41,770 nucleotides of DNA from a virus. The notes beneath the pieces were generated by a model. The model saw nothing but the letters and a program-made list of their open reading frames with translations, made no database searches and was not told where the DNA came from. The stretch's first letter is position 1. The number at the start of each line of letters is the position of its first letter. Of the stretch, positions 3,688-27,132 are shown piece by piece. The position numbers and the translations under genes are program-made. The DNA lies in IMG/VR virus record IMGVR_UViG_3300031730_000012, positions 1 to 41,770 of that record; one strand, written 5' to 3'.

Positions 3688-3906
3688 GTGGCGATGAACC
3701 GGCGGGACACTCTCTCTGACCTGCACGAACGTCTGACCGTCGCCCTCGACGACGTCGTTGACCCGCGCGACCTGGCCGCGCTGTCGAAGGAACTCCGCGC
3801 CGTCGTGGCCGAACTGGACACCCTGCCGGGCGGTGAGGAGGTCGACGCCGTTGACGACCTCGCTGCTCGACGTCAGGCGCGGCTCGCAGACGCCGCGGGT
3901 CAGTAA
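3688..3906 (+). CDS. Terminase small subunit-like protein, 72 aa
   Basis: The short acidic helical product (RRDTLSDLHERLTVALDD, then LAALSKELRAVVAELDTLP and DDLAARRQARLADAAG) matches the short small-terminase proteins of Streptomyces phages. They bind the packaging site and pass DNA to the large subunit. It precedes and overlaps the large subunit gene. The start may be the GTG used here or the ATG six bases later; no clear ribosome site separates them. Confidence 0.6.
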   Translation: MAMNRRDTLSDLHERLTVALDDVVDPRDLAALSKELRAVVAELDTLPGGEEVDAVDDLAARRQARLADAAGQ

Positions 3907-5341
3907 CTATCCGACCTACGACCTGTCCGCCGCGCCGGAGATCATCGACCTGGCCGCTTCCGCCGGCCTGCACCTCGACGAGTGGCAGCAGTACGTGCTC
4001 ACGCACGGGCTCGGGATGCACGCCGACGGCGAGTACACGGCTCGGCGAGTGTCGTGCTGGGTGCCGCGGCAGAACGGCAAGGGCGCCATCATCGAGGCGC
4101 TGGAGCTGGCCTGGCTGTTCCTGCTCGACGAAGAGCTGGTCATCCATTCGGCGCACCAGCACCGCACGTCGAAGCGGGCCTATGCGCGGCTGGAGAAGTA
4201 CATCCGGCGGACGCCGGCGATGTTCAAGCGGGTCAGGGCGTTCCGGCAGACCAACGGCGAGCACGAGATCGAGCTGCATGACGGCCGGCTTCTGCAGTAC
4301 ACGACCCGCTCGCGCACGGCGGTGCGCGGCTTCTCGTCGCCGAAGTTGGTGCTGGACGAGGCGCAGGAGCTCACCGGCGAGCAGATCGCCGCGATCGTGC
4401 CGACGGTTTCGGCGATGCCGAACTGGCAGATCTGGTTCTTCGGCACTCCGCCGGACGACCCGGCGGCGTGGGTGTACGGGCTGAAGGAGGACGGCGAGGC
4501 CGGCCGGCCTCGCCTGGCGCACTTCGACTGGGGCACGGAGCTCGTCGCCGAAGCGGCCGGTACGTACGAGAAGGCCGCGGATATCGAGGTGGCGTACGCG
4601 TCGAACCCGGCGCTGGGTGGCCGGATCGAAGTGGCGACCGTCGAGGACGAGTACCGGCCCTCCGGTCTGGGTGTGAAGTACCCGCAGGAGCGCCTCGGCG
4701 CGTGGAAGCCTCGGGCCCTTGTCGGCGGCGGCGTGATCGACCCGCGGGTGTGGGCGCAGCTCACCGACGCGGAATCGAAGCGCGCCGGAGACGTGGCCCT
4801 GGCCGTGGACGTGACCCCGCTGCGCGACCACGCGTCGATCTCGATGTATGGCCTGCGCGGCGATGGCCTGGGCCACGTGCAGACGGTGGTCTACGGCGAG
4901 GGCGTCGACTGGGTGGTCGCCAAGCTCCTCGAGCTCAGGGCCGTGCTGGACCCGATCGCGATCGGCTTGGACCCGAAAGGCGGCGCGGCGTCGTTACTCG
5001 GCGAGCTCGAGGCGGTCGGCATCAGGCCGCCGGAGGACGCGGAGCACCCAGTGCGCGGCGACCTGGCGTTGCCGCTGGTGCACGAGGTCGCGCAGGGCGT
5101 GGGCCAGTTCATCGACGCGTGCCGGGAGCGGAAGCTGCGGCACGTCGGGCAGACGGAGCTGTCCAGCGCGGTGGCGAACGCGAAGACCCGGCCGCTGGCG
5201 GATGCGGTGGCGTGGGGTCGCAAGCAGAGCGACGTGGACATCTCGCCGCTGGTCAGCGTGACGCTGGCGCGGTGGGCGTACGTGACGCGGATCGGCGTCA
5301 AGCCGAAGGCGCAGGAGCTGACCGGCTCCCTGATGGCGTGA
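3851..5341 (+). CDS. Terminase large subunit
   Basis: This is the DNA-packaging ATPase and nuclease. With the TTG start (496 aa), Walker A is VPRQNGKGA (71-79), Walker B LVLDE (166-170) and the coupling motif FFGTP (197-201). The C-terminal RNase-H-like nuclease shows Asp320 in LAVDVTPLRDH and Asp374 in IGLDPKGG. The early GSQTPRV motif is the usual beginning of this family, which places the true start just upstream and inside the small subunit gene. The TTG is the nearest in-frame candidate; it has no strong ribosome site, so the start is uncertain. It may be translated by coupling. Confidence 0.92.
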   Translation: MTTSLLDVRRGSQTPRVSNYPTYDLSAAPEIIDLAASAGLHLDEWQQYVLTHGLGMHADGEYTARRVSCWVPRQNGKGAIIEALELAWLFLLDEELVIHSAHQHRTSKRAYARLEKYIRRTPAMFKRVRAFRQTNGEHEIELHDGRLLQYTTRSRTAVRGFSSPKLVLDEAQELTGEQIAAIVPTVSAMPNWQIWFFGTPPDDPAAWVYGLKEDGEAGRPRLAHFDWGTELVAEAAGTYEKAADIEVAYASNPALGGRIEVATVEDEYRPSGLGVKYPQERLGAWKPRALVGGGVIDPRVWAQLTDAESKRAGDVALAVDVTPLRDHASISMYGLRGDGLGHVQTVVYGEGVDWVVAKLLELRAVLDPIAIGLDPKGGAASLLGELEAVGIRPPEDAEHPVRGDLALPLVHEVAQGVGQFIDACRERKLRHVGQTELSSAVANAKTRPLADAVAWGRKQSDVDISPLVSVTLARWAYVTRIGVKPKAQELTGSLMA

Positions 5342-20692: not shown

Positions 20693-20974
20693 ATGGTTGA
20701 GCAGGTCATCCAGTACGTCAACGGCATCGAGTACAACGGGGCTAACCGCGAGGACATCCTTGCCGCACTCCCGCCGCAGACGGTAATCGACTACCACGTC
20801 GAACTCCAGGCGGCAGCGGGTGACACTGCCGTCTACAGGTTCGACGACGGTTCCGGGCTGCAGACGTACACGCTCGCGGTCGGGGACTGGCTGATCTGGT
20901 CGTATGGCCCTCCCCAGTCGCTGCCGGCGGCAGCGTTCGCCAGCAGCTACGTCAAGAGGTCCGACCTGCCATGA
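20693..20974 (+). CDS. Hypothetical tail-region protein, 93 aa
   Basis: CGAGGAGG lies before the ATG. The protein has a beta-rich core (TVIDYHVELQAAAGDTAVYR, YTLAVGDWLIWSYGPP) and no membrane segment. Its role is not recognised; it may be a small tail-fibre or chaperone protein. It overlaps the endolysin start by 4 bp. Confidence 0.55.
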   Translation: MVEQVIQYVNGIEYNGANREDILAALPPQTVIDYHVELQAAAGDTAVYRFDDGSGLQTYTLAVGDWLIWSYGPPQSLPAAAFASSYVKRSDLP

Positions 20975-21861
20975 GTTGGCGACTCACCAAGAGCCTGGCC
21001 AGATTCCGGCGCCTCGTCGACGAACGCTGGCCGAACCGGGATCATGCGTCCGACGGCACGATCGGCGACACGGCGCACCAGGCCGAGACCTCGGGCCACA
21101 ACCCGGACGACACGGCCGGAAGCCGGCCCGAGTGGAACAGCGACTCCGACAGCGTCGCCGAGGTGCGCGCGTTCGACATGGACTCCGACCTGCGCGAGCC
21201 CGGCACGACCGCGCAGCAGCTGGTCGACCACCTGCGCGTGCTGCCCGGCCTGGACAAGGTGTTCCGGTACATCATCTTCGACCGGAAGATCTACCGCGCG
21301 TCCAACGACTGGAAGCCCGAGACGTACACCGGGGCCAGCCCGCACACCGAGCACATCCACTTTTCCGGCGCCTACACCCAGGCCGCAGACGACAACGAGA
21401 CCTTCGACTTCCGACTCGACGAGGTAGGGAACATGGCGCTGACCGATGACGACCTGGACAAGGTTGAGGCGAGGGTCCTCGCTCTGCTGCGGGGTGCGGA
21501 CGGCAAGCGTGCTGTCGGCCAGGCCGTGCTCGGCTACGACCCCGGCTACATCGACGGCGACCCCACCAAGGGCGTGTGGCCGGGCATCCCGGACGCCACC
21601 TACGGCAAGTCGTCGAGCACCAACGGCACGGTTGGCCTCGGCACGGCGGTCGGCACCCTGCTGTCCCGGCAGCAGACGAACGCCCAGGCCGACGCGGTCG
21701 CCGCCCAGGCGGTCACGACCGCGCTGGCCGCAGTGGTTCCCGCCGTCGCTGCCGCGGTCATCGCGAAACTGCCGCAAGGCGCGGACCAGATCAGCCAGGC
21801 CGAGGTCACCGAGGCGGTCCGGGTGGCGTTCGCTGACGCGTTCGGCTCGGCGTCCGCATGA
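20971..21861 (+). CDS. Endolysin, M15-type peptidase
   Basis: The N-terminal ~140 residues have the zinc peptidase layout of the VanY/M15 family: an early His (SGHNPDD), an acidic pair in VRAFDMDSDLREPG, VFRYIIFDRKIYRAS, and a late HIHFSG with two metal His (128, 130). It would cut peptidoglycan cross-links to release phage. The C-terminal half (GKRAVGQAVLGYDPGY, then Ala/Val-rich helices) is not a known binding domain and may target the wall. 4-bp overlap upstream. Confidence 0.8.
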   Translation: MSWRLTKSLARFRRLVDERWPNRDHASDGTIGDTAHQAETSGHNPDDTAGSRPEWNSDSDSVAEVRAFDMDSDLREPGTTAQQLVDHLRVLPGLDKVFRYIIFDRKIYRASNDWKPETYTGASPHTEHIHFSGAYTQAADDNETFDFRLDEVGNMALTDDDLDKVEARVLALLRGADGKRAVGQAVLGYDPGYIDGDPTKGVWPGIPDATYGKSSSTNGTVGLGTAVGTLLSRQQTNAQADAVAAQAVTTALAAVVPAVAAAVIAKLPQGADQISQAEVTEAVRVAFADAFGSASA

Positions 21862-22747: not shown

Positions 22748-22775
22748 CGCCCCTCGAGCTCCGGCTCGAGGGGCG
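22748..22775. terminator. Bidirectional hairpin terminator (module A side)
   Basis: A perfect 11-bp stem, CGCCCCTCGAG at 22748-22758 and CTCGAGGGGCG at 22765-22775, encloses a CTCCGG loop. TTTCG follows on plus and AGTTTTGT on minus. It ends the late operon from the left and the minus-strand HTH gene from the right. Confidence 0.75.
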
Positions 22776-22792
22776 TTTCGTCATGTCCGGGA

Positions 22793-22993
22793 TCAGGCGT
22801 CGCCTTCGGGTTCCTCGGCGACCTGCTTCCGGTTCGTCCGGATCCAGGCCTCGACGACCTCGGCGTCCCACACCGCGCCCATCTCGAGCGTGTCGAGCGG
22901 CTCGGGGAATCCGCGTTGCCGGGAGATGACGTACGCCCGCTGCCGCCCGACGCCGAGCGCCTTGGCGATCTCCGCGGTGCCCATCAACCTCAT
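22793..22993 (-). CDS. AlpA/MerR-like HTH protein, copy A, 66 aa
   Basis: The small DNA-binding protein has the helix-turn-helix GTAEIAKALGVGRQRAYVIS and the wing-like FPEPLDTLEMGAVWDAEVVE, the AlpA/excisionase pattern. It is a paralogue of the protein at 23198-23434; both share LGVxRQRA, FPEPxDTL and a closing ExPExD tail. MRLMG at 22993 or MG at 22984 may start it. It lies inside a duplicated module and is likely a regulator or excisionase. DNA target unknown. Confidence 0.65.
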   Translation of the reverse strand: MRLMGTAEIAKALGVGRQRAYVISRQRGFPEPLDTLEMGAVWDAEVVEAWIRTNRKQVAEEPEGDA

Positions 22994-23046
22994 AGACGCA
23001 CACGCTAAGTACACATACGGTTTACGCCCGGAGTGCGTCTGCCCTG

Positions 23047-23075
23047 TTAACAATCGCTGTGTACGCGTGTAACCT
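23047..23075 (+). promoter_or_regulatory. Plus-strand promoter of module A
   Basis: TTAACA at 23047-23052 and TAACCT at 23070-23075 are spaced by 17 nt beginning ATCG. The same spacing and -10 box occur at 23464-23492, which strengthens the call. A short transcript into the terminator at 23146-23182 would result. Confidence 0.5.
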
Positions 23076-23081
23076 GCGATC

Positions 23082-23185
23082 ACAGAAGGCAGACGAGCAG
23101 ACCTTGGCCGGGTGCGCACTCGTCGCCCCCTTTCCGTGAGCACGAAAGCGCCGCCCGGACCAGATGGTCGCGGGCGGCGCTTCTT
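23082..23185 (+). ncRNA. Candidate short transcript with conserved hairpin (copy A)
   Basis: A transcript from the promoter at 23047-23075 would start near 23082, pass a 33-nt hairpin (GACGAG at 23092-23097 with CTCGTC at 23119-23124), and end at the strong stem at 23146-23182. No good ORF lies in it. The hairpin recurs at 23507-23539 with one compensatory A-U to G-C change. This may be a small RNA or a remnant leader; expression is unproven. Confidence 0.3.
23146..23182. terminator. Bidirectional hairpin terminator (between modules A and B)
   Basis: AAGCGCCGCCCG at 23146-23157 pairs with CGGGCGGCGCTT at 23171-23182, a perfect 12-bp stem. GACC at 23158-23161 and GGTC at 23166-23169 extend it past a one-base bulge, leaving an AGAT loop. 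CTTCG follows on plus and CGTG on minus. It can end the minus HTH gene B and the plus transcript A. Confidence 0.7.
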
Positions 23186-23197
23186 CGCGTCTGGGGT

Positions 23198-23434
23198 TCA
23201 GGTGTCGGTCTCGGGGTCCTCGGAAAGCGCTGGCCGATGCTTGGCCATCCAGCGGTCGACGTCCTCGATCAGCCACACCTGGATGTTGCCGGGCAGCGTG
23301 TCGAACGGCTCGGGGAAGTTCAGGCGGCGGTCGTTGACGACTTGGAGAGCGCGCTGCCGGGTGACGCCGAGCAGGTCGGCGATGTCCCCCGTCGTGTAGA
23401 GCTTCCTCGGCACGTTGATCACCGTACGTACCAA
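23198..23434 (-). CDS. AlpA/MerR-like HTH protein, copy B, 78 aa or less
   Basis: The helix-turn-helix is TTGDIADLLGVTRQRALQVV, followed by NFPEPFDTLPGNIQVWLIED and a DRWMAKH helix. It is a paralogue of copy A. The listed start is TTG; a GTG at 23422 gives 74 residues and is as likely, as neither has a clear ribosome site. It may be leaderless. Probable role: transcription control or excision. Confidence 0.65.
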   Translation of the reverse strand: MVRTVINVPRKLYTTGDIADLLGVTRQRALQVVNDRRLNFPEPFDTLPGNIQVWLIEDVDRWMAKHRPALSEDPETDT

Positions 23435-23463
23435 GGCGCTTTACGTTGGGTGTAACCAGCGTC

Positions 23464-23492
23464 TTTACCATCGACTTGTCGACGGGTAACCT
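23464..23492 (+). promoter_or_regulatory. Plus-strand promoter of module B
   Basis: TTTACC at 23464-23469 and TAACCT at 23487-23492 are spaced by 17 nt beginning ATCG, just as in copy A. It points at the 57-residue gene at 23570. Confidence 0.5.
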
Positions 23493-23506
23493 CCCGTGCA
23501 CAAGGC

Positions 23507-23539
23507 GACGGGCAAAATCCCTGGCCGGGCGCGCCCGTC
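23507..23539 (+). promoter_or_regulatory. Conserved 33-nt leader hairpin (copy B)
   Basis: GACGGGC at 23507-23513 pairs with GCCCGTC at 23533-23539. The loop holds CTGGCCGGG, shared (as TTGGCCGGG) with copy A at 23092-23124, which is also 33 nt. It lies in the 5' leader of the 23570 gene, before a GGGAG ribosome site. It may be an RNA control element or a protein-binding DNA site. Confidence 0.4.
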
Positions 23540-23569
23540 GTCGCCCGACACCGATGGGAGATCGCTCAG

Positions 23570-23743
23570 ATGCGCCTGATGCGACAACTTTGGCTTTTGA
23601 TCAACTGGCGGCGGCGCCGCCTCTACCGCGCGGCGGTCGCCGAGACGCGCCGGTGGCAGCGCGAAGAGCGCGAGAAGATGGCGCAGTACTGCCCCCACGT
23701 GCGGCGCATCATCGCGGATGACGGCGGCCGGTCATGGCGGTAG
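23570..23743 (+). CDS. Small basic protein, 57 aa
   Basis: The very Arg-rich product (MRLMRQLWLLINWRRRRLYR start) is helical with a hydrophobic face. GGGAG lies about 9 nt upstream, behind the promoter and leader hairpin. It overlaps the next gene by 10 bp. No family is recognised; the basic helix could bind nucleic acid or membrane. Confidence 0.45.
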   Translation: MRLMRQLWLLINWRRRRLYRAAVAETRRWQREEREKMAQYCPHVRRIIADDGGRSWR

Positions 23744-24177
23744 TCGGCGGCGCGTCCCACTACGACCTGCCGCCCGGCGACGAGCTGAGCTGGCGCAACC
23801 GGCGCATCATCGCCGAGCGCATGCGCTGGCCCGCGGGCGCCCTCGAGGCGTGCGAGGAGATCGAGCGTACGCACCCCGGCTGGTCGCCCAGCTGGCACGA
23901 CGCGAACATCTACCCGGGCTTCGAAGCGCCCGCGGGGTACTACGCCCTGCGACTCGAGCGGAACCGGGGCGAGGGCCCCGCCTATGGCGTGGACGCCGCA
24001 GCGCTGACCGCGGCGATCGAGGCGGTGTTCAGTCGCTGTCCCACCTGCGGCCTGCGCTATCCGGTCCCACCGGACAGCGACATCCCGCTACACGAGGCCC
24101 CGGGTACGGGCCGCCGGTGCGATGTCCATTGGAGCAGGCGCACCGTCGAGGCCGAGCCCGGCAGCTGCGTCGCCTGA
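23734..24177 (+). CDS. Hypothetical protein, 147 aa
   Basis: The protein has a helical N-terminus (ELSWRNRRIIAERMRWPAGA), a middle with HPGWSPSWHDANIYPGF, and a late CPTCGLRY Cys pair with a further Cys (GRRCDVHW), so a zinc site is possible. I do not recognise the family. It lies between the regulatory module and the membrane-protein gene on the other strand. Confidence 0.55.
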   Translation: MAVVGGASHYDLPPGDELSWRNRRIIAERMRWPAGALEACEEIERTHPGWSPSWHDANIYPGFEAPAGYYALRLERNRGEGPAYGVDAAALTAAIEAVFSRCPTCGLRYPVPPDSDIPLHEAPGTGRRCDVHWSRRTVEAEPGSCVA

Positions 24178-24222: not shown

Positions 24223-24996
24223 TTAACCCGTGCAGGACTGATAGGCCTTGGAGTACCCCGGGTCGCCTGCGGCGTCAGCCGACTCCCGATACTTCCCGCC
24301 GCCGTAACCCCAGCCAGGCCTTGCGCCCGTCTCGGCGCCGATGATCGAGAATAGGTGGCGGCCGTCGGCACAGTCCGAGTTGCCGATGAACTGCATGCCA
24401 CCGCTGGCGTCTACGCAGCCGGCCAGCGCCTTTTCTTCGTCGATGACCTTGCCGGGCTGAAACACTTCGGAGCACTTCGGAGTGGCGGCGGCGGTGGGCG
24501 CTGCGCCAGGGGCGCCGCTGGCGTTGCCAGCGAGGTTCATGTCGACGATGACGCCGCGGTCGGCGCAAGCCGACTGCAGGGCTGTCGCCTGTGTCATGAG
24601 CGGTCCCATGTAGGCGAGCGCGCCGAGTCCCGGATCGGCGCCGAGCTTGCTCATCTGCCACACGACGTCGACCAGCTTGGTGCCATGATCGCGAATGTCG
24701 CCGTACCGAGAGTCCTCGAACTGGCCGCGGAGCTGCTTGTACTCCGCCTCGGTCATCTGGGCCGAGTTCTTGGCTGGCGCCGTCTTGGCGTTGTCGCGCA
24801 TGGCCTTGCAGGCGGCTACGCCGGAGTCCTCTCGGATCACCTGGTCGTAGATGACCCAGGAGACGCCGGCGAGGAAGACGATCGCGACGGCCAAGACGAG
24901 CCACGGCCAGAGCGCCCGTCGCTGCGGAGGGGCGACAGCCGGCGTGGGCACGGGCGGCCAGTATTGATCGTTTCCGGGGACTATCGGCGTGCTCAT
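24223..24996 (-). CDS. Membrane-anchored exported protein, lysogenic-conversion candidate, 257 aa
   Basis: A Pro-rich N-terminus is followed by one membrane segment (about residues 29-50: WPWLVLAVAIVFLAGVSWVI) and a ~205-residue outer domain with several Cys (Cys63 in AACKAMRDN, and later CADRG, CSEVF, CVDAS, NSDCADG, YQSCTG). GAAGGA lies just before the ATG, which rules out the longer frame. It is transcribed toward the regulatory genes and sits beside attP, where phages keep host-expressed cargo. Function is not recognised. Confidence 0.6.
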   Translation of the reverse strand: MSTPIVPGNDQYWPPVPTPAVAPPQRRALWPWLVLAVAIVFLAGVSWVIYDQVIREDSGVAACKAMRDNAKTAPAKNSAQMTEAEYKQLRGQFEDSRYGDIRDHGTKLVDVVWQMSKLGADPGLGALAYMGPLMTQATALQSACADRGVIVDMNLAGNASGAPGAAPTAAATPKCSEVFQPGKVIDEEKALAGCVDASGGMQFIGNSDCADGRHLFSIIGAETGARPGWGYGGGKYRESADAAGDPGYSKAYQSCTG

Positions 24997-25215
24997 GGAC
25001 TGTCCTTCGAGGTGAGAGGCCGCGGCCGGGCGCATCGCGCAGTGTGCACTCTCAGCAGTGATCTAGCAACACATAGTCGCCGATCCGATCTGGACGGTGG
25101 ATCTCCACTCAACGATCATGCCCACCGGGGTCATGGTCACGGTCGATGCGTCAACCGTTTACCCAGCGTTAACTGGATCGGCGCCCGGCCTTCCATCCAC
25201 CGATAGGGAGCCACC
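24997..25215. promoter_or_regulatory. Divergent intergenic region between two exported-protein genes
   Basis: This gap holds the promoters of the two divergent genes. On plus, TTTACC near 25158 and TTAACT near 25170 look promoter-like but do not have a 17-nt spacing. GATAGGGAG just before 25216 is the ribosome site of the right gene. No large inverted repeat is visible. Confidence 0.35.
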
Positions 25216-25812
25216 ATGCACAGCCAAACCGGCATCGTTGCCGGACTGGCCCTGATCATCGTCATCCTCACCGCCGACCCGGCCGCCGCCGATCCGGTGC
25301 TGCCGCTGCCGGTGGTGTCCATCGACCTACTGCCCGACCGCAACCCGCACACCACCACGGCCACCACCGCGCCGCCGGCGACGACCCAGACCCCGTCGCC
25401 GAAGCCGGCCAGCGCAAAGCCGATCAAGACCACCACGAGGGAGCAGCACGCAGTGCGCACAAACGGGGGCGGCACGAACGGTGTCGCGCAACACGAAAAG
25501 GCGACCCAGACCCCGTCGCCGAAGCCGACGTTGAGACCAGCGGCTCCTGAGCCGCCGAGGGAGGCCGCCGGGCCGAACGACAACATGGTCGGCCGACGCG
25601 ATCGCTGGTTTGATCTGGCCGCGCTCGCCCTCGTGGCGCTCGTGGCAGCGGCCTTCATGCCGTGGCGCCCGCGATCGCCTCGGCCGCGGACCACGCCGCC
25701 GCGCGGCATACCGCCGTGCATCGACCCCGAGACGGCTGTCGATGCCCTCTTGGTCGAGGTGTACCGGGACGGGTACGGGGACGGCTACGTCGACTGCACC
25801 ACGCTGAAGTGA
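25216..25812 (+). CDS. Secreted/membrane Pro-Thr-rich protein, lysogenic-conversion candidate, 198 aa
   Basis: A signal-peptide-like start (LALIIVILTADPAAADP, cut near residue 25) leads to a Thr/Pro-rich outer stretch with the repeated TQTPSPKP, then a membrane segment (about 131-150: LAALALVALVAAAFMPW) and a short basic cytoplasmic tail. Exact 26-bp repeats at 25382-25407 and 25502-25527 encode TQTPSPKP. It could alter the lysogen surface; no enzyme motif is seen. Confidence 0.6.
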   Translation: MHSQTGIVAGLALIIVILTADPAAADPVLPLPVVSIDLLPDRNPHTTTATTAPPATTQTPSPKPASAKPIKTTTREQHAVRTNGGGTNGVAQHEKATQTPSPKPTLRPAAPEPPREAAGPNDNMVGRRDRWFDLAALALVALVAAAFMPWRPRSPRPRTTPPRGIPPCIDPETAVDALLVEVYRDGYGDGYVDCTTLK

Positions 25813-25950: not shown

Positions 25951-27132
25951 TCAGGATGCCGTCTGACCTGCTGGTTCTTCCTCGCTCTCCCCCGTTGATT
26001 CCCGTTGTTCCCCGCCGGGTTCCCCTAGGATTCCCCTAAAGTCGATCTTGCAGAGGGAGTGCTCCGTGGCCGCGATGATGTTGTCGTCCACGATCGGCAG
26101 CAAGTGCCCGTACATGTCCGATGTGACCGTGATCGAGCTATGACCGAAGCGGCGCTGAATGCCGGTGAGCGGCACGCCGTCTGAGATCAGGTGCGCCGCA
26201 TGGGTGTGCCGAAGGTCGTGGATGCGCAGCCCGACAAGACCGGCCCGCGCCGCACAGGCCACGAAGAGCCGCCAGAACCTTCGGTAGCGCACCGCGCCGC
26301 CGTCCGGCTCGCGGAACACGTACGCGTCGCGGTGCTGCATCGCCACCGCCGGAATGAGCAGCTCCGCCACGTCCTGCGGGTAGGTCACCGTACGCCGGGA
26401 CTCGGCCGTCTTCGGTGGGCCTGTGACGAGCGGCTGACCGGGGGACAACTCGTGCAGCGTCTCTTCCACGCGCAGCGTCCGCGCCAGCACATCCACGCGC
26501 TGGATCTTCAGCCCGGCCACCTCCGACCAGCGCAGGCCCGTGGCGACCAGCAGCACAACGAGCGGACGCCAGTACGCCGGCATCGCCATGACCAGCCGGC
26601 CGATCTCCGCCTCGTCCAGGTATCGCTGCTCCCTGAACTCGACCTTGGGCAGGCCGGTGCGGTAGCACGGATTCTTGCGGACCATCCGCTCATCGACGGC
26701 GCCCTGGAGGATGGAGTACAGGACACCGTGGACGTTGCGGATCGTCTTCTCCGCCAGCGGATAGCGGTCCATCTCCTCATCCCCGGAGAGCAACAGGGAT
26801 ACCCAGCTCTTGATGATCAGCGGAGTCAGCTCGTCGAGGCGGTACTCCCCCAGCAGCGGCAGGATGTGGTTGCGCACCCGGGCGCCCTCGCTCTTGCGTG
26901 AGCTTGGCCTGAGGCCGGCCTCGTGCGTCGGCCAGAAGAGCGCGGTCCACTCCTCGAGGGTGATCCGGCCGCCCCGCGGGTCGATGTATTCGCCCCTGAG
27001 CCGGTCCCCCTCGAGGAGCGTCATCGCCTTCTTGGCCACGGTCTTGTTCGGATAGCCCGACTCGACGGTCACCTTCCTGCCGGCGACCAGGTCGCGGATG
27101 CGGTAGGTCGGCCCGTTCTTCTCGACCCACAT
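25951..27132 (-). CDS. int: Tyrosine integrase
   Basis: The 393-residue protein has an N-terminal arm-binding region (about 1-55), an SAM-like core-binding domain (about 58-160) and the catalytic domain with Arg201 (ATGLRWSEVAGL), Lys241 (GPPKTAESRR), His305 and Arg308 (HDLRHTHAAHL), His331 (FGHSSI) and Tyr341 (TSDMYGHL). It recombines phage attP with host attB. Its gene ends about 20 bp from the tRNA-like attP core, the usual arrangement. All catalytic residues are present, so it should be active. Confidence 0.95.
   Translation of the reverse strand: MWVEKNGPTYRIRDLVAGRKVTVESGYPNKTVAKKAMTLLEGDRLRGEYIDPRGGRITLEEWTALFWPTHEAGLRPSSRKSEGARVRNHILPLLGEYRLDELTPLIIKSWVSLLLSGDEEMDRYPLAEKTIRNVHGVLYSILQGAVDERMVRKNPCYRTGLPKVEFREQRYLDEAEIGRLVMAMPAYWRPLVVLLVATGLRWSEVAGLKIQRVDVLARTLRVEETLHELSPGQPLVTGPPKTAESRRTVTYPQDVAELLIPAVAMQHRDAYVFREPDGGAVRYRRFWRLFVACAARAGLVGLRIHDLRHTHAAHLISDGVPLTGIQRRFGHSSITVTSDMYGHLLPIVDDNIIAATEHSLCKIDFRGILGEPGGEQRESTGESEEEPAGQTAS

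What the first reader, a model, noticed from the sequence alone, without database searches (positions are those of the whole stretch)
22748..23570. Duplicated regulatory module: HTH gene, divergent promoter and conserved hairpin
Two adjacent units have the same plan: hairpin terminator, minus-strand AlpA-like HTH gene, then a plus-strand promoter (TTAACA or TTTACC, 17-nt spacer starting ATCG, TAACCT) and a 33-nt hairpin holding TGGCCGGG. The HTH proteins are clear paralogues (LGVxRQRA, FPEPxDTL). The hairpin stems (GACGAG/CTCGTC against GACGGGC/GCCCGTC) differ by a compensatory A-U to G-C change. Unit B feeds a real gene, unit A ends at a terminator. I know of no described system with this plan; whether the hairpin acts as RNA or as a DNA site for the HTH proteins is open.
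Basis: partly seen in the sequence, partly recalled or inferred. Interest (0 to 1): 0.76.

Follow-up and report, generated by a model that had tools for sequence, protein, structure and literature searches.

The report
Integrase-linked phage cassette with leader hairpin
Many viruses of Actinoplanes and related bacteria carry, beside their integrase gene, a small DNA-binding regulator that faces a promoter, a strong hairpin at the very start of the RNA and an exchangeable small gene; the window holds two such units, one of which has no gene, and nobody seems to have described the arrangement.

Summary
The window (an IMG/VR phage record) holds two paralogous HTH genes (44% identity), each facing a promoter with a 17-nt spacer and a leader hairpin. 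Unit B feeds a small gene; unit A ends at a terminator.
I found the same plan in about 50 other units in Actinoplanes prophages and uncultured actinophages, nearly always 0.6-4 kb from the integrase.
Between HTH start and -10, close relatives of unit B are 76% identical without gaps; right after the -10 identity falls to 35%. Only the structure persists: in 34 of 36 units with a strong stem, it starts 5-14 nt after the -10, at or just after the predicted transcription start. The hairpin follows the downstream gene, not the HTH. So the hairpin is very probably an RNA leader belonging to the gene, and the operators are more likely repeated boxes over both promoters (TTTACC in unit B's clade).
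Best model: a prophage accessory-gene cassette under a divergent, leaderless, MerR/Xis-like autoregulator, functionally like acr-aca, with a 5'-terminal stem-loop that stabilises or insulates the mRNA. The TGGCCGGG loop is peculiar to this phage. Repression, RNA role and cargo function are inferred.

The parts
22748..22775 (-). terminator-like hairpin downstream of HTH-A
   Evidence: 12-pair stem plus T-rich tail on the - strand
22793..22993 (-). HTH-A, 66 aa, MerR/Xis/AlpA-like winged HTH, paralogue of HTH-B
   Evidence: 44% identity to HTH-B, E 5e-16; PHROG excisionase/regulator hits
22999..23014 (-). predicted promoter end of HTH-A: TAGCGT-type -10 about 8 nt before its ATG (leaderless)
   Evidence: sequence; conserved in relatives
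23047..23075 (+). promoter A: TTAACA, 17 nt, TAACCT; predicted start near 23082
   Evidence: sequence
23088..23127 (+). leader hairpin A (GGC-A-GACGAG / CTCGTC-GCC) with the TGGCCGGG loop
   Evidence: weak as a stem alone
23148..23180 (.). strong terminator-like hairpin, end of the gene-less unit A transcript and of HTH-B
   Evidence: (A leader plus this hairpin z = -5.0); no ORF with SD between
23198..23413 (-). HTH-B, 71 aa if it starts at the leaderless GTG 23411-23413 (the longest ORF starts at 23434)
   Evidence: -10 TACGGT exactly 7 nt before GTG, conserved in the clade
23440..23492 (.). putative operator region of HTH-B: two TTTACS-WTSG boxes 24 bp apart plus GGTAAC over the -10
   Evidence: ungapped block of 76% identity among five relatives
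23464..23492 (+). promoter B: TTTACC, 17 nt, TAACCT; predicted start near 23499
   Evidence: sequence, conserved in relatives
23504..23545 (+). leader hairpin B, nearly 5'-terminal, ~20-nt loop with TGGCCGGG
23556..23561 (+). Shine-Dalgarno sequence (GGGAG) before the cargo gene
   Evidence: sequence
23570..23743 (+). cargo gene 1, 57 aa, basic; same class by eye as cargo of L132, L170, L236, L260
23734..24177 (+). cargo gene 2, 147 aa; related by eye to cargo in L241, L249, L251, L265; no Pfam, PHROG or cultured-phage match
25951..27132 (-). tyrosine integrase to which the module is linked
   Evidence: Pfam Phage_integrase E 9e-22

Best explanation
Each unit is a self-regulated accessory-gene cassette of a temperate actinophage, placed between the late lysis genes and the integrase. 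The small leaderless HTH protein (MerR/BldC/Xis fold) binds repeated boxes that lie over its own promoter and the divergent cargo promoter (-35 and -10) and represses both (inferred). The cargo transcript starts about 7 nt after the -10 and opens almost at once with a GC-rich stem-loop (stem about 10-16 bp, loop often about 20 nt), followed about 25-30 nt later by a start codon with a free Shine-Dalgarno sequence and a small exchangeable gene. The hairpin belongs to the leader-plus-cargo half and acts in the RNA; its likeliest job is a 5'-terminal stem that protects and insulates the mRNA of the short cargo (inferred). Unit A is a cassette whose cargo has been lost, leaving a ~100-nt RNA that ends at a terminator (inferred).
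For: Same plan in about 50 further units. Stem statistics: p = 4e-11, 5e-10 in a second set with GC-matched controls, 67% of units against 7% of other gene leaders above the cut-off. Position lock: 34 of 36 strong stems start 5-14 nt after the -10. Arms match their own partner: -26.8 against -15.3 kcal/mol when swapped. Sharp boundary: 76% identity from HTH start to -10, 35% after it. Leader similarity tracks cargo (Mantel r = 0.32, 0 of 5000 permutations) more than HTH (r = 0.11); e.g. L145/L265 share leader and cargo with HTH similarity 0.33, while L139/L141 share HTH (0.89) but not leader (0.09). Fold: wHTH, nearest to MerR-type regulators, RacA, BldC and excisionases, though no Foldseek hit has E <= 0.001. 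Integrase 0.6-4.1 kb away in 31 of 33 records. The hairpin is not followed by a T tract and the scan finds no terminator there.
Against: No expression or binding data. About a quarter of the 48 units have no strong hairpin (e.g. L241, L256, L259, L268, L270), so it is not essential to the plan. In the window hairpin A is weak by itself. The stabiliser role rests on position, strength and lack of sequence constraint only. Promoters, starts and operators are predicted from sequence.
Confidence: 0.6

Rival explanations
1. The hairpin is a binding site of the HTH protein, either as DNA operator or as RNA, as reported for the anti-CRISPR regulator Aca2 (own knowledge).
For: The HTH gene, promoter and hairpin occur together; HTH proteins that bind both DNA and leader RNA exist (own knowledge; the paper was not found in the library).
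Against: HTHs with closely similar sequence (B, L139, L140, L141) have unrelated hairpin sequences; the hairpin follows cargo, not HTH; stems are GC-rich and do not contain the TTTACC/GGTAAC boxes.
Confidence: 0.1
2. The hairpin is a conditional terminator (attenuator) in front of the cargo, opened by an unknown antitermination factor or alternative structure.
For: Very stable GC-rich stem between promoter and gene in most units; many 3' arms carry CCUCC and 5' arms GGAGG, so an alternative pairing with the real SD is conceivable.
Against: No T tract after the stem; the terminator scan finds nothing at the hairpin; no proven alternative structure; the second SD-proximal hairpin I suspected is not above chance (p = 0.62).
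Confidence: 0.15
3. Read-through switch as in T4 gene e (own knowledge): sequence between -10 and +1 pairs with the SD only in transcripts that come from upstream, so only transcripts from the cassette's own promoter are translated.
For: Pairing between the -10..+1 segment and the SD region exceeds swapped pairs: p = 0.009 (n = 17), p = 0.0086 (all, n = 34).
Against: In the new set alone p = 0.08 (n = 17); post hoc idea; little upstream transcription is expected across a convergent HTH gene.
Confidence: 0.12
4. The HTH is mainly the excisionase (recombination directionality factor) of the neighbouring integrase, and the divergent gene and hairpin are incidental.
For: Constant linkage to the integrase; PHROG excisionase-and-regulator hits; fold like RdfS, GIsul2 excisionase and BldC.
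Against: The same family sits beside tyrosine and serine integrases alike; divergent promoter and operator block are strongly conserved; two HTHs in this phage. A double role is not excluded.
Confidence: 0.15
5. Unit A makes a trans-acting small RNA that uses the shared TGGCCGGG loop to act on the unit B leader (kissing loops).
For: Loop shared at 13 of 15 positions although stems and HTHs differ; unit A has no gene and ends at a strong terminator-like hairpin.
Against: Another unit without a recognised gene (L140) has no matching partner that I found; shared ancestry of the two leaders explains the loop.
Confidence: 0.08

Closest known systems
acr-aca anti-CRISPR operons with autoregulatory Aca proteins (PMC9410906)
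   Same: small HTH protein represses the promoter of small, unrelated, exchangeable phage accessory genes through repeats over -35/-10
   Different: HTH is divergent and leaderless, of MerR/Xis type, no match to an Aca or Acr family seen; operators look like direct or inverted TTTACC boxes; a leader hairpin follows the promoter; cargo function unknown
SAS/ESAS elements of cluster K mycobacteriophages (PMC3203893, PMC12699233)
   Same: inverted repeat with spacer upstream of the start site of many non-structural actinophage genes
   Different: ESAS repeats are conserved in sequence within a phage or subcluster; here the stem sequence is free and only structure and position are kept; an HTH gene is linked here
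BldC (PMC5859096) and RdfS/Xis-type wHTH proteins (PMC11963761)
   Same: 68-80 aa single wHTH domain; BldC binds direct repeats as cooperative multimers
   Different: Foldseek E-values are weak (about 0.2-0.4 for BldC and RdfS), low sequence identity; own operator type and genetic context
Prophage-expressed defence genes of Mycobacterium and Gordonia phages near integration and immunity functions (PMC6426606)
   Same: variable accessory genes beside the integrase of temperate actinophages
   Different: in the system studied there (CarolAnn 43/44) the defence genes are co-expressed with the immunity repressor; no dedicated HTH/leader-hairpin unit was seen in the passages read; expression in lysogeny is untested here

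Membership tests
acr-aca operon | HTH gene regulates the promoter of the accessory genes through repeats over the core promoter | tested here: inconclusive
   conserved boxes over -35/-10; no binding or repression data
acr-aca operon | a gene of a known Acr or Aca family | tested here: inconclusive
   no Pfam, PHROG or PADLOC assignment of cargo, HTH matches weak; no dedicated Acr/Aca library was on hand
acr-aca operon | aca lies in the same operon as the acr gene | tested here: not met
   HTH gene is divergent from the cargo
SAS/ESAS | sequence-conserved 17-bp inverted repeats within a phage or subcluster | tested here: not met
   stem sequences differ between units, 35% identity after the -10
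SAS/ESAS | 13-bp GGGATAGGAGCCC at the start codon | not tested
   not searched for as a pattern; not seen in the leaders read by eye
MerR/Xis/AlpA-like wHTH (HTH_17) | wHTH fold | tested here: met
   AlphaFold model pLDDT 77 with strand-helix-helix-strand-strand-helix order; nearest solved folds MerR types, RacA, BldC, excisionases, though none at E <= 0.001
MerR/Xis/AlpA-like wHTH (HTH_17) | Pfam HTH_17 score above the gathering cut-off | tested here: not met
   16 and 19 bits against 27
excisionase (RDF) | needed for excision with the adjacent integrase | not testable with these tools
   linkage only
known Rfam RNA family | match above the gathering score | tested here: not met
   no Rfam match in the window
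intrinsic terminator | stem followed by a U tract | tested here: not met
   leader hairpins not listed by the terminator scan

The most novel reading that the evidence does not exclude
The units are a previously undescribed cassette system of temperate actinophages: an integrase-linked regulator-plus-promoter half and a leader-hairpin-plus-cargo half recombine at the -10/start, bringing small anti-defence or lysogenic-defence genes under one dedicated autoregulator, with a structural 5'-terminal RNA stem as a standard part of most cargos.
Probability: 0.3. Interest if true: 0.75.

Novelty: new variant of a known kind. Interest (0 to 1): 0.56.

Why it matters
If right, the HTH family marks a fixed position where actinophages keep small exchangeable genes of unknown function, which gives a direct way (guilt by association, as with aca genes) to find new anti-defence or superinfection-exclusion genes in a host group where such genes are little known. 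It also gives a case where a 5'-terminal mRNA stem is kept for structure and position alone across dozens of unrelated sequences, which makes the function of such leader stems in actinobacteria testable with simple stem-swap experiments.

Tried and rejected
Loop pattern CCYTGGCCGGGYGCGCMC: 10 matches, none with the promoter/stem context. Second, SD-proximal hairpin in the leader tail: not above shuffles (p = 0.62). Outer helix of -10..+1 with the SD: borderline, kept as a rival only. Hairpin as HTH operator: disfavoured by cargo tracking and the sharp boundary. Rfam: nothing. Cultured phages: no relatives of HTH-B, of cargo 2, of a class-2 cargo or of two diverged phage HTHs; HTH-A has one weak match, to a protein annotated antitoxin in an M. 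abscessus prophage. A covariance model was not built because stems share no sequence and MAFFT could not align them by structure. The library does not seem to hold the Aca2 RNA-binding paper.

Full report
What is there. The window is a 41,770-base IMG/VR phage record. Between the late/lysis genes (an ORF at 20971-21861 whose DNA resembles Actinoplanes phage phiAsp2) and a tyrosine integrase (25951-27132, -) lie two units of the same plan. Unit A: terminator-like hairpin 22748-22775, HTH-A 22793-22993 (-), promoter TTAACA-17-TAACCT (23047-23075), hairpin 23092-23124, terminator-like hairpin 23148-23180. Unit B: HTH-B (-, stop at 23198, probable leaderless start GTG at 23413-23411), promoter TTTACC-17-TAACCT (23464-23492), hairpin 23507-23539, SD, a 57-codon gene at 23570-23743 and an overlapping 147-codon gene at 23734-24177. 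The HTHs are 44% identical.

Is it more than chance? Taken alone, hairpin A is weak and hairpin B moderate. The shared loop (13 of 15 positions at the same register) is expected about once in 10,000 random pairs. The convincing evidence is comparative.

Relatives. Searches with HTH-B, HTH-A and their alignments found relatives in IMG/VR phages and in genomes of Actinoplanes, other Micromonosporaceae and a few other actinobacteria: 44 of 301 Micromonosporaceae genomes at E <= 1e-22, 12 of 68 in the genus of G002 at 1e-25, but only 2 of 395 across the class at 1e-25 (one of them G002 itself). Cultured phage records hold no relative of HTH-B and one weak match to HTH-A. Reading the divergent strand upstream of each HTH gene shows the same plan again and again: a TANNNT -10 about 7 nt before the HTH start codon (leaderless HTH mRNA), repeated operator-like boxes, a divergent promoter, a GC-rich hairpin, an SD and a small gene.

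The hairpin is a property of the RNA leader. With a simple stem score, 31 first-set units exceed random windows of their own loci with Fisher p = 4e-11. A second set of 28 units found afterwards, against GC-matched windows, gives 5e-10. Leaders of other genes in the same loci reach the cut-off in 7% of cases against 67%. In the 36 of 48 units with a strong stem, the 5' arm starts 5-14 nt after the end of the -10 in 34, so the stem begins at or just after the predicted start of the RNA. Arms pair far better with their own partner than with other units' arms (-26.8 against -15.3 kcal/mol), that is, sequence changes while pairing stays. Units share some ancestry, so these p-values are not for fully independent events.

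It is probably not the HTH operator. For five close relatives (B, L139, L140, L141, L129) the block from HTH start to -10 aligns without gaps at 76% identity, and the next 70 nt at 35%, close to the level for unrelated GC-rich sequence. Over 48 units, leader similarity follows cargo similarity (r = 0.32, no permutation of 5000 as high) more than HTH similarity (r = 0.11); pairs such as L139/L141 share the HTH but not the leader, and L145/L265 share leader and cargo with a distant HTH. The conserved TTTACC/GGTAAC boxes inside the promoter block are the natural operator candidates; in other HTH clades the boxes differ but sit in the same place (TGTCA/TGACA in L196-L206; CTTTACGA...TCGTAAAG in L136).

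Context. In 31 of 33 phage records examined an integrase domain lies 0.6-4.1 kb from the HTH gene, tyrosine type in most and serine type in eight records (distances worked out by hand from those tables). One record (G016) has its integrases about 36 kb away and one (G723) has none in the record. In the window the cargo points towards the integrase and the HTH towards the late genes. Cargo proteins fall by eye into several small classes (basic 'RR..VRRIIAQD' proteins, 'VTVLPPY' proteins, 'DEDLSLGY' proteins, 'C..C..PWPC' proteins), without Pfam, PHROG or PADLOC assignment for those scanned.

Mechanism. Shown here: gene order, promoter-like sequences, operator-block conservation, the position-locked structured leader, cargo tracking, integrase linkage. 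Inferred: repression by the HTH, transcription starts, the role of the stem (5'-end protection and insulation being most likely because only structure and position are kept), accessory or anti-defence function of the cargo. The HTH model (pLDDT 77) resembles MerR-type regulators, RacA, BldC and excisionases at low significance; BldC binds direct repeats as cooperative multimers (PMC5859096), which would suit the repeated boxes. Unit A is best seen as a cassette without cargo; a second apparent case is L140. A trans-acting role of unit A RNA is possible but unsupported.

Comparison with the known. It works like acr-aca loci (PMC9410906), where a small HTH protein represses the promoter of small accessory genes, but the gene is divergent, the family is different and no Acr or Aca match was seen, so I do not file it as one. 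ESAS elements of cluster K mycobacteriophages (PMC3203893) are the closest described leader repeats, but they are conserved in sequence. The position recalls prophage-expressed defence genes near the integration functions of actinophages (PMC6426606). I therefore call it a new variant of a known kind.

Limits. No experimental data were available; starts and operators are predictions; about a quarter of units lack a strong hairpin; start codons of some cargo genes were chosen by hand; the outer-helix idea is borderline (p = 0.009 in the first set, 0.08 in the second) and the second-hairpin idea failed.

Noticed in passing
L140 near 3700-3900 (divergent side of HTH at 4001): A second unit whose leader hairpin is followed by terminator-like hairpins instead of a clear gene, like unit A.
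   Followed up: partly
L196, L197, L201-L203, L206, L208: Diverged Micromonosporaceae HTH genes with TGTCA/TGACA boxes and a downstream hairpin GGTCCGGC...GCCGGACC whose loop (TACCTGATCAGGGATCGGTG) is largely conserved while the stem covaries; could give a proper covariance model.
   Followed up: no
G002:C3 411844, G006:C18 112576, G013:C1 30062, G011:C1 8037, L136 2836-3117: A second, more distant HTH gene about 1 kb from the unit HTH; upstream regions read lack the hairpin and some carry GATC-rich palindromes (GTTGATCAG, GACCGATCGG).
   Followed up: no
L148, L256, L259, L268, L270: Cargo class MxWKLT...DEDLSLGY goes with a short leader and, in most, a tiny palindrome such as GCACATGTGC instead of the large hairpin.
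   Followed up: no
leaders of e.g. L237, L247, L261, L263, L265: The 5' arm of the stem often carries GGAGG (GAGG/GGAGG-like in the first 8 nt in 19 of 36), so the 3' arm carries CCTCC, an anti-SD sequence; a possible alternative pairing with the real SD was not tested.
   Followed up: no
window 24223-25035: Minus-strand 270-aa protein with an apparent N-terminal membrane segment and no family match, between the cargo and the integrase.
   Followed up: no
window 25382-25407 and 25502-25527: Exact 26-bp direct repeat, start to start 120 bp apart, between the cargo and the integrase gene.
   Followed up: no
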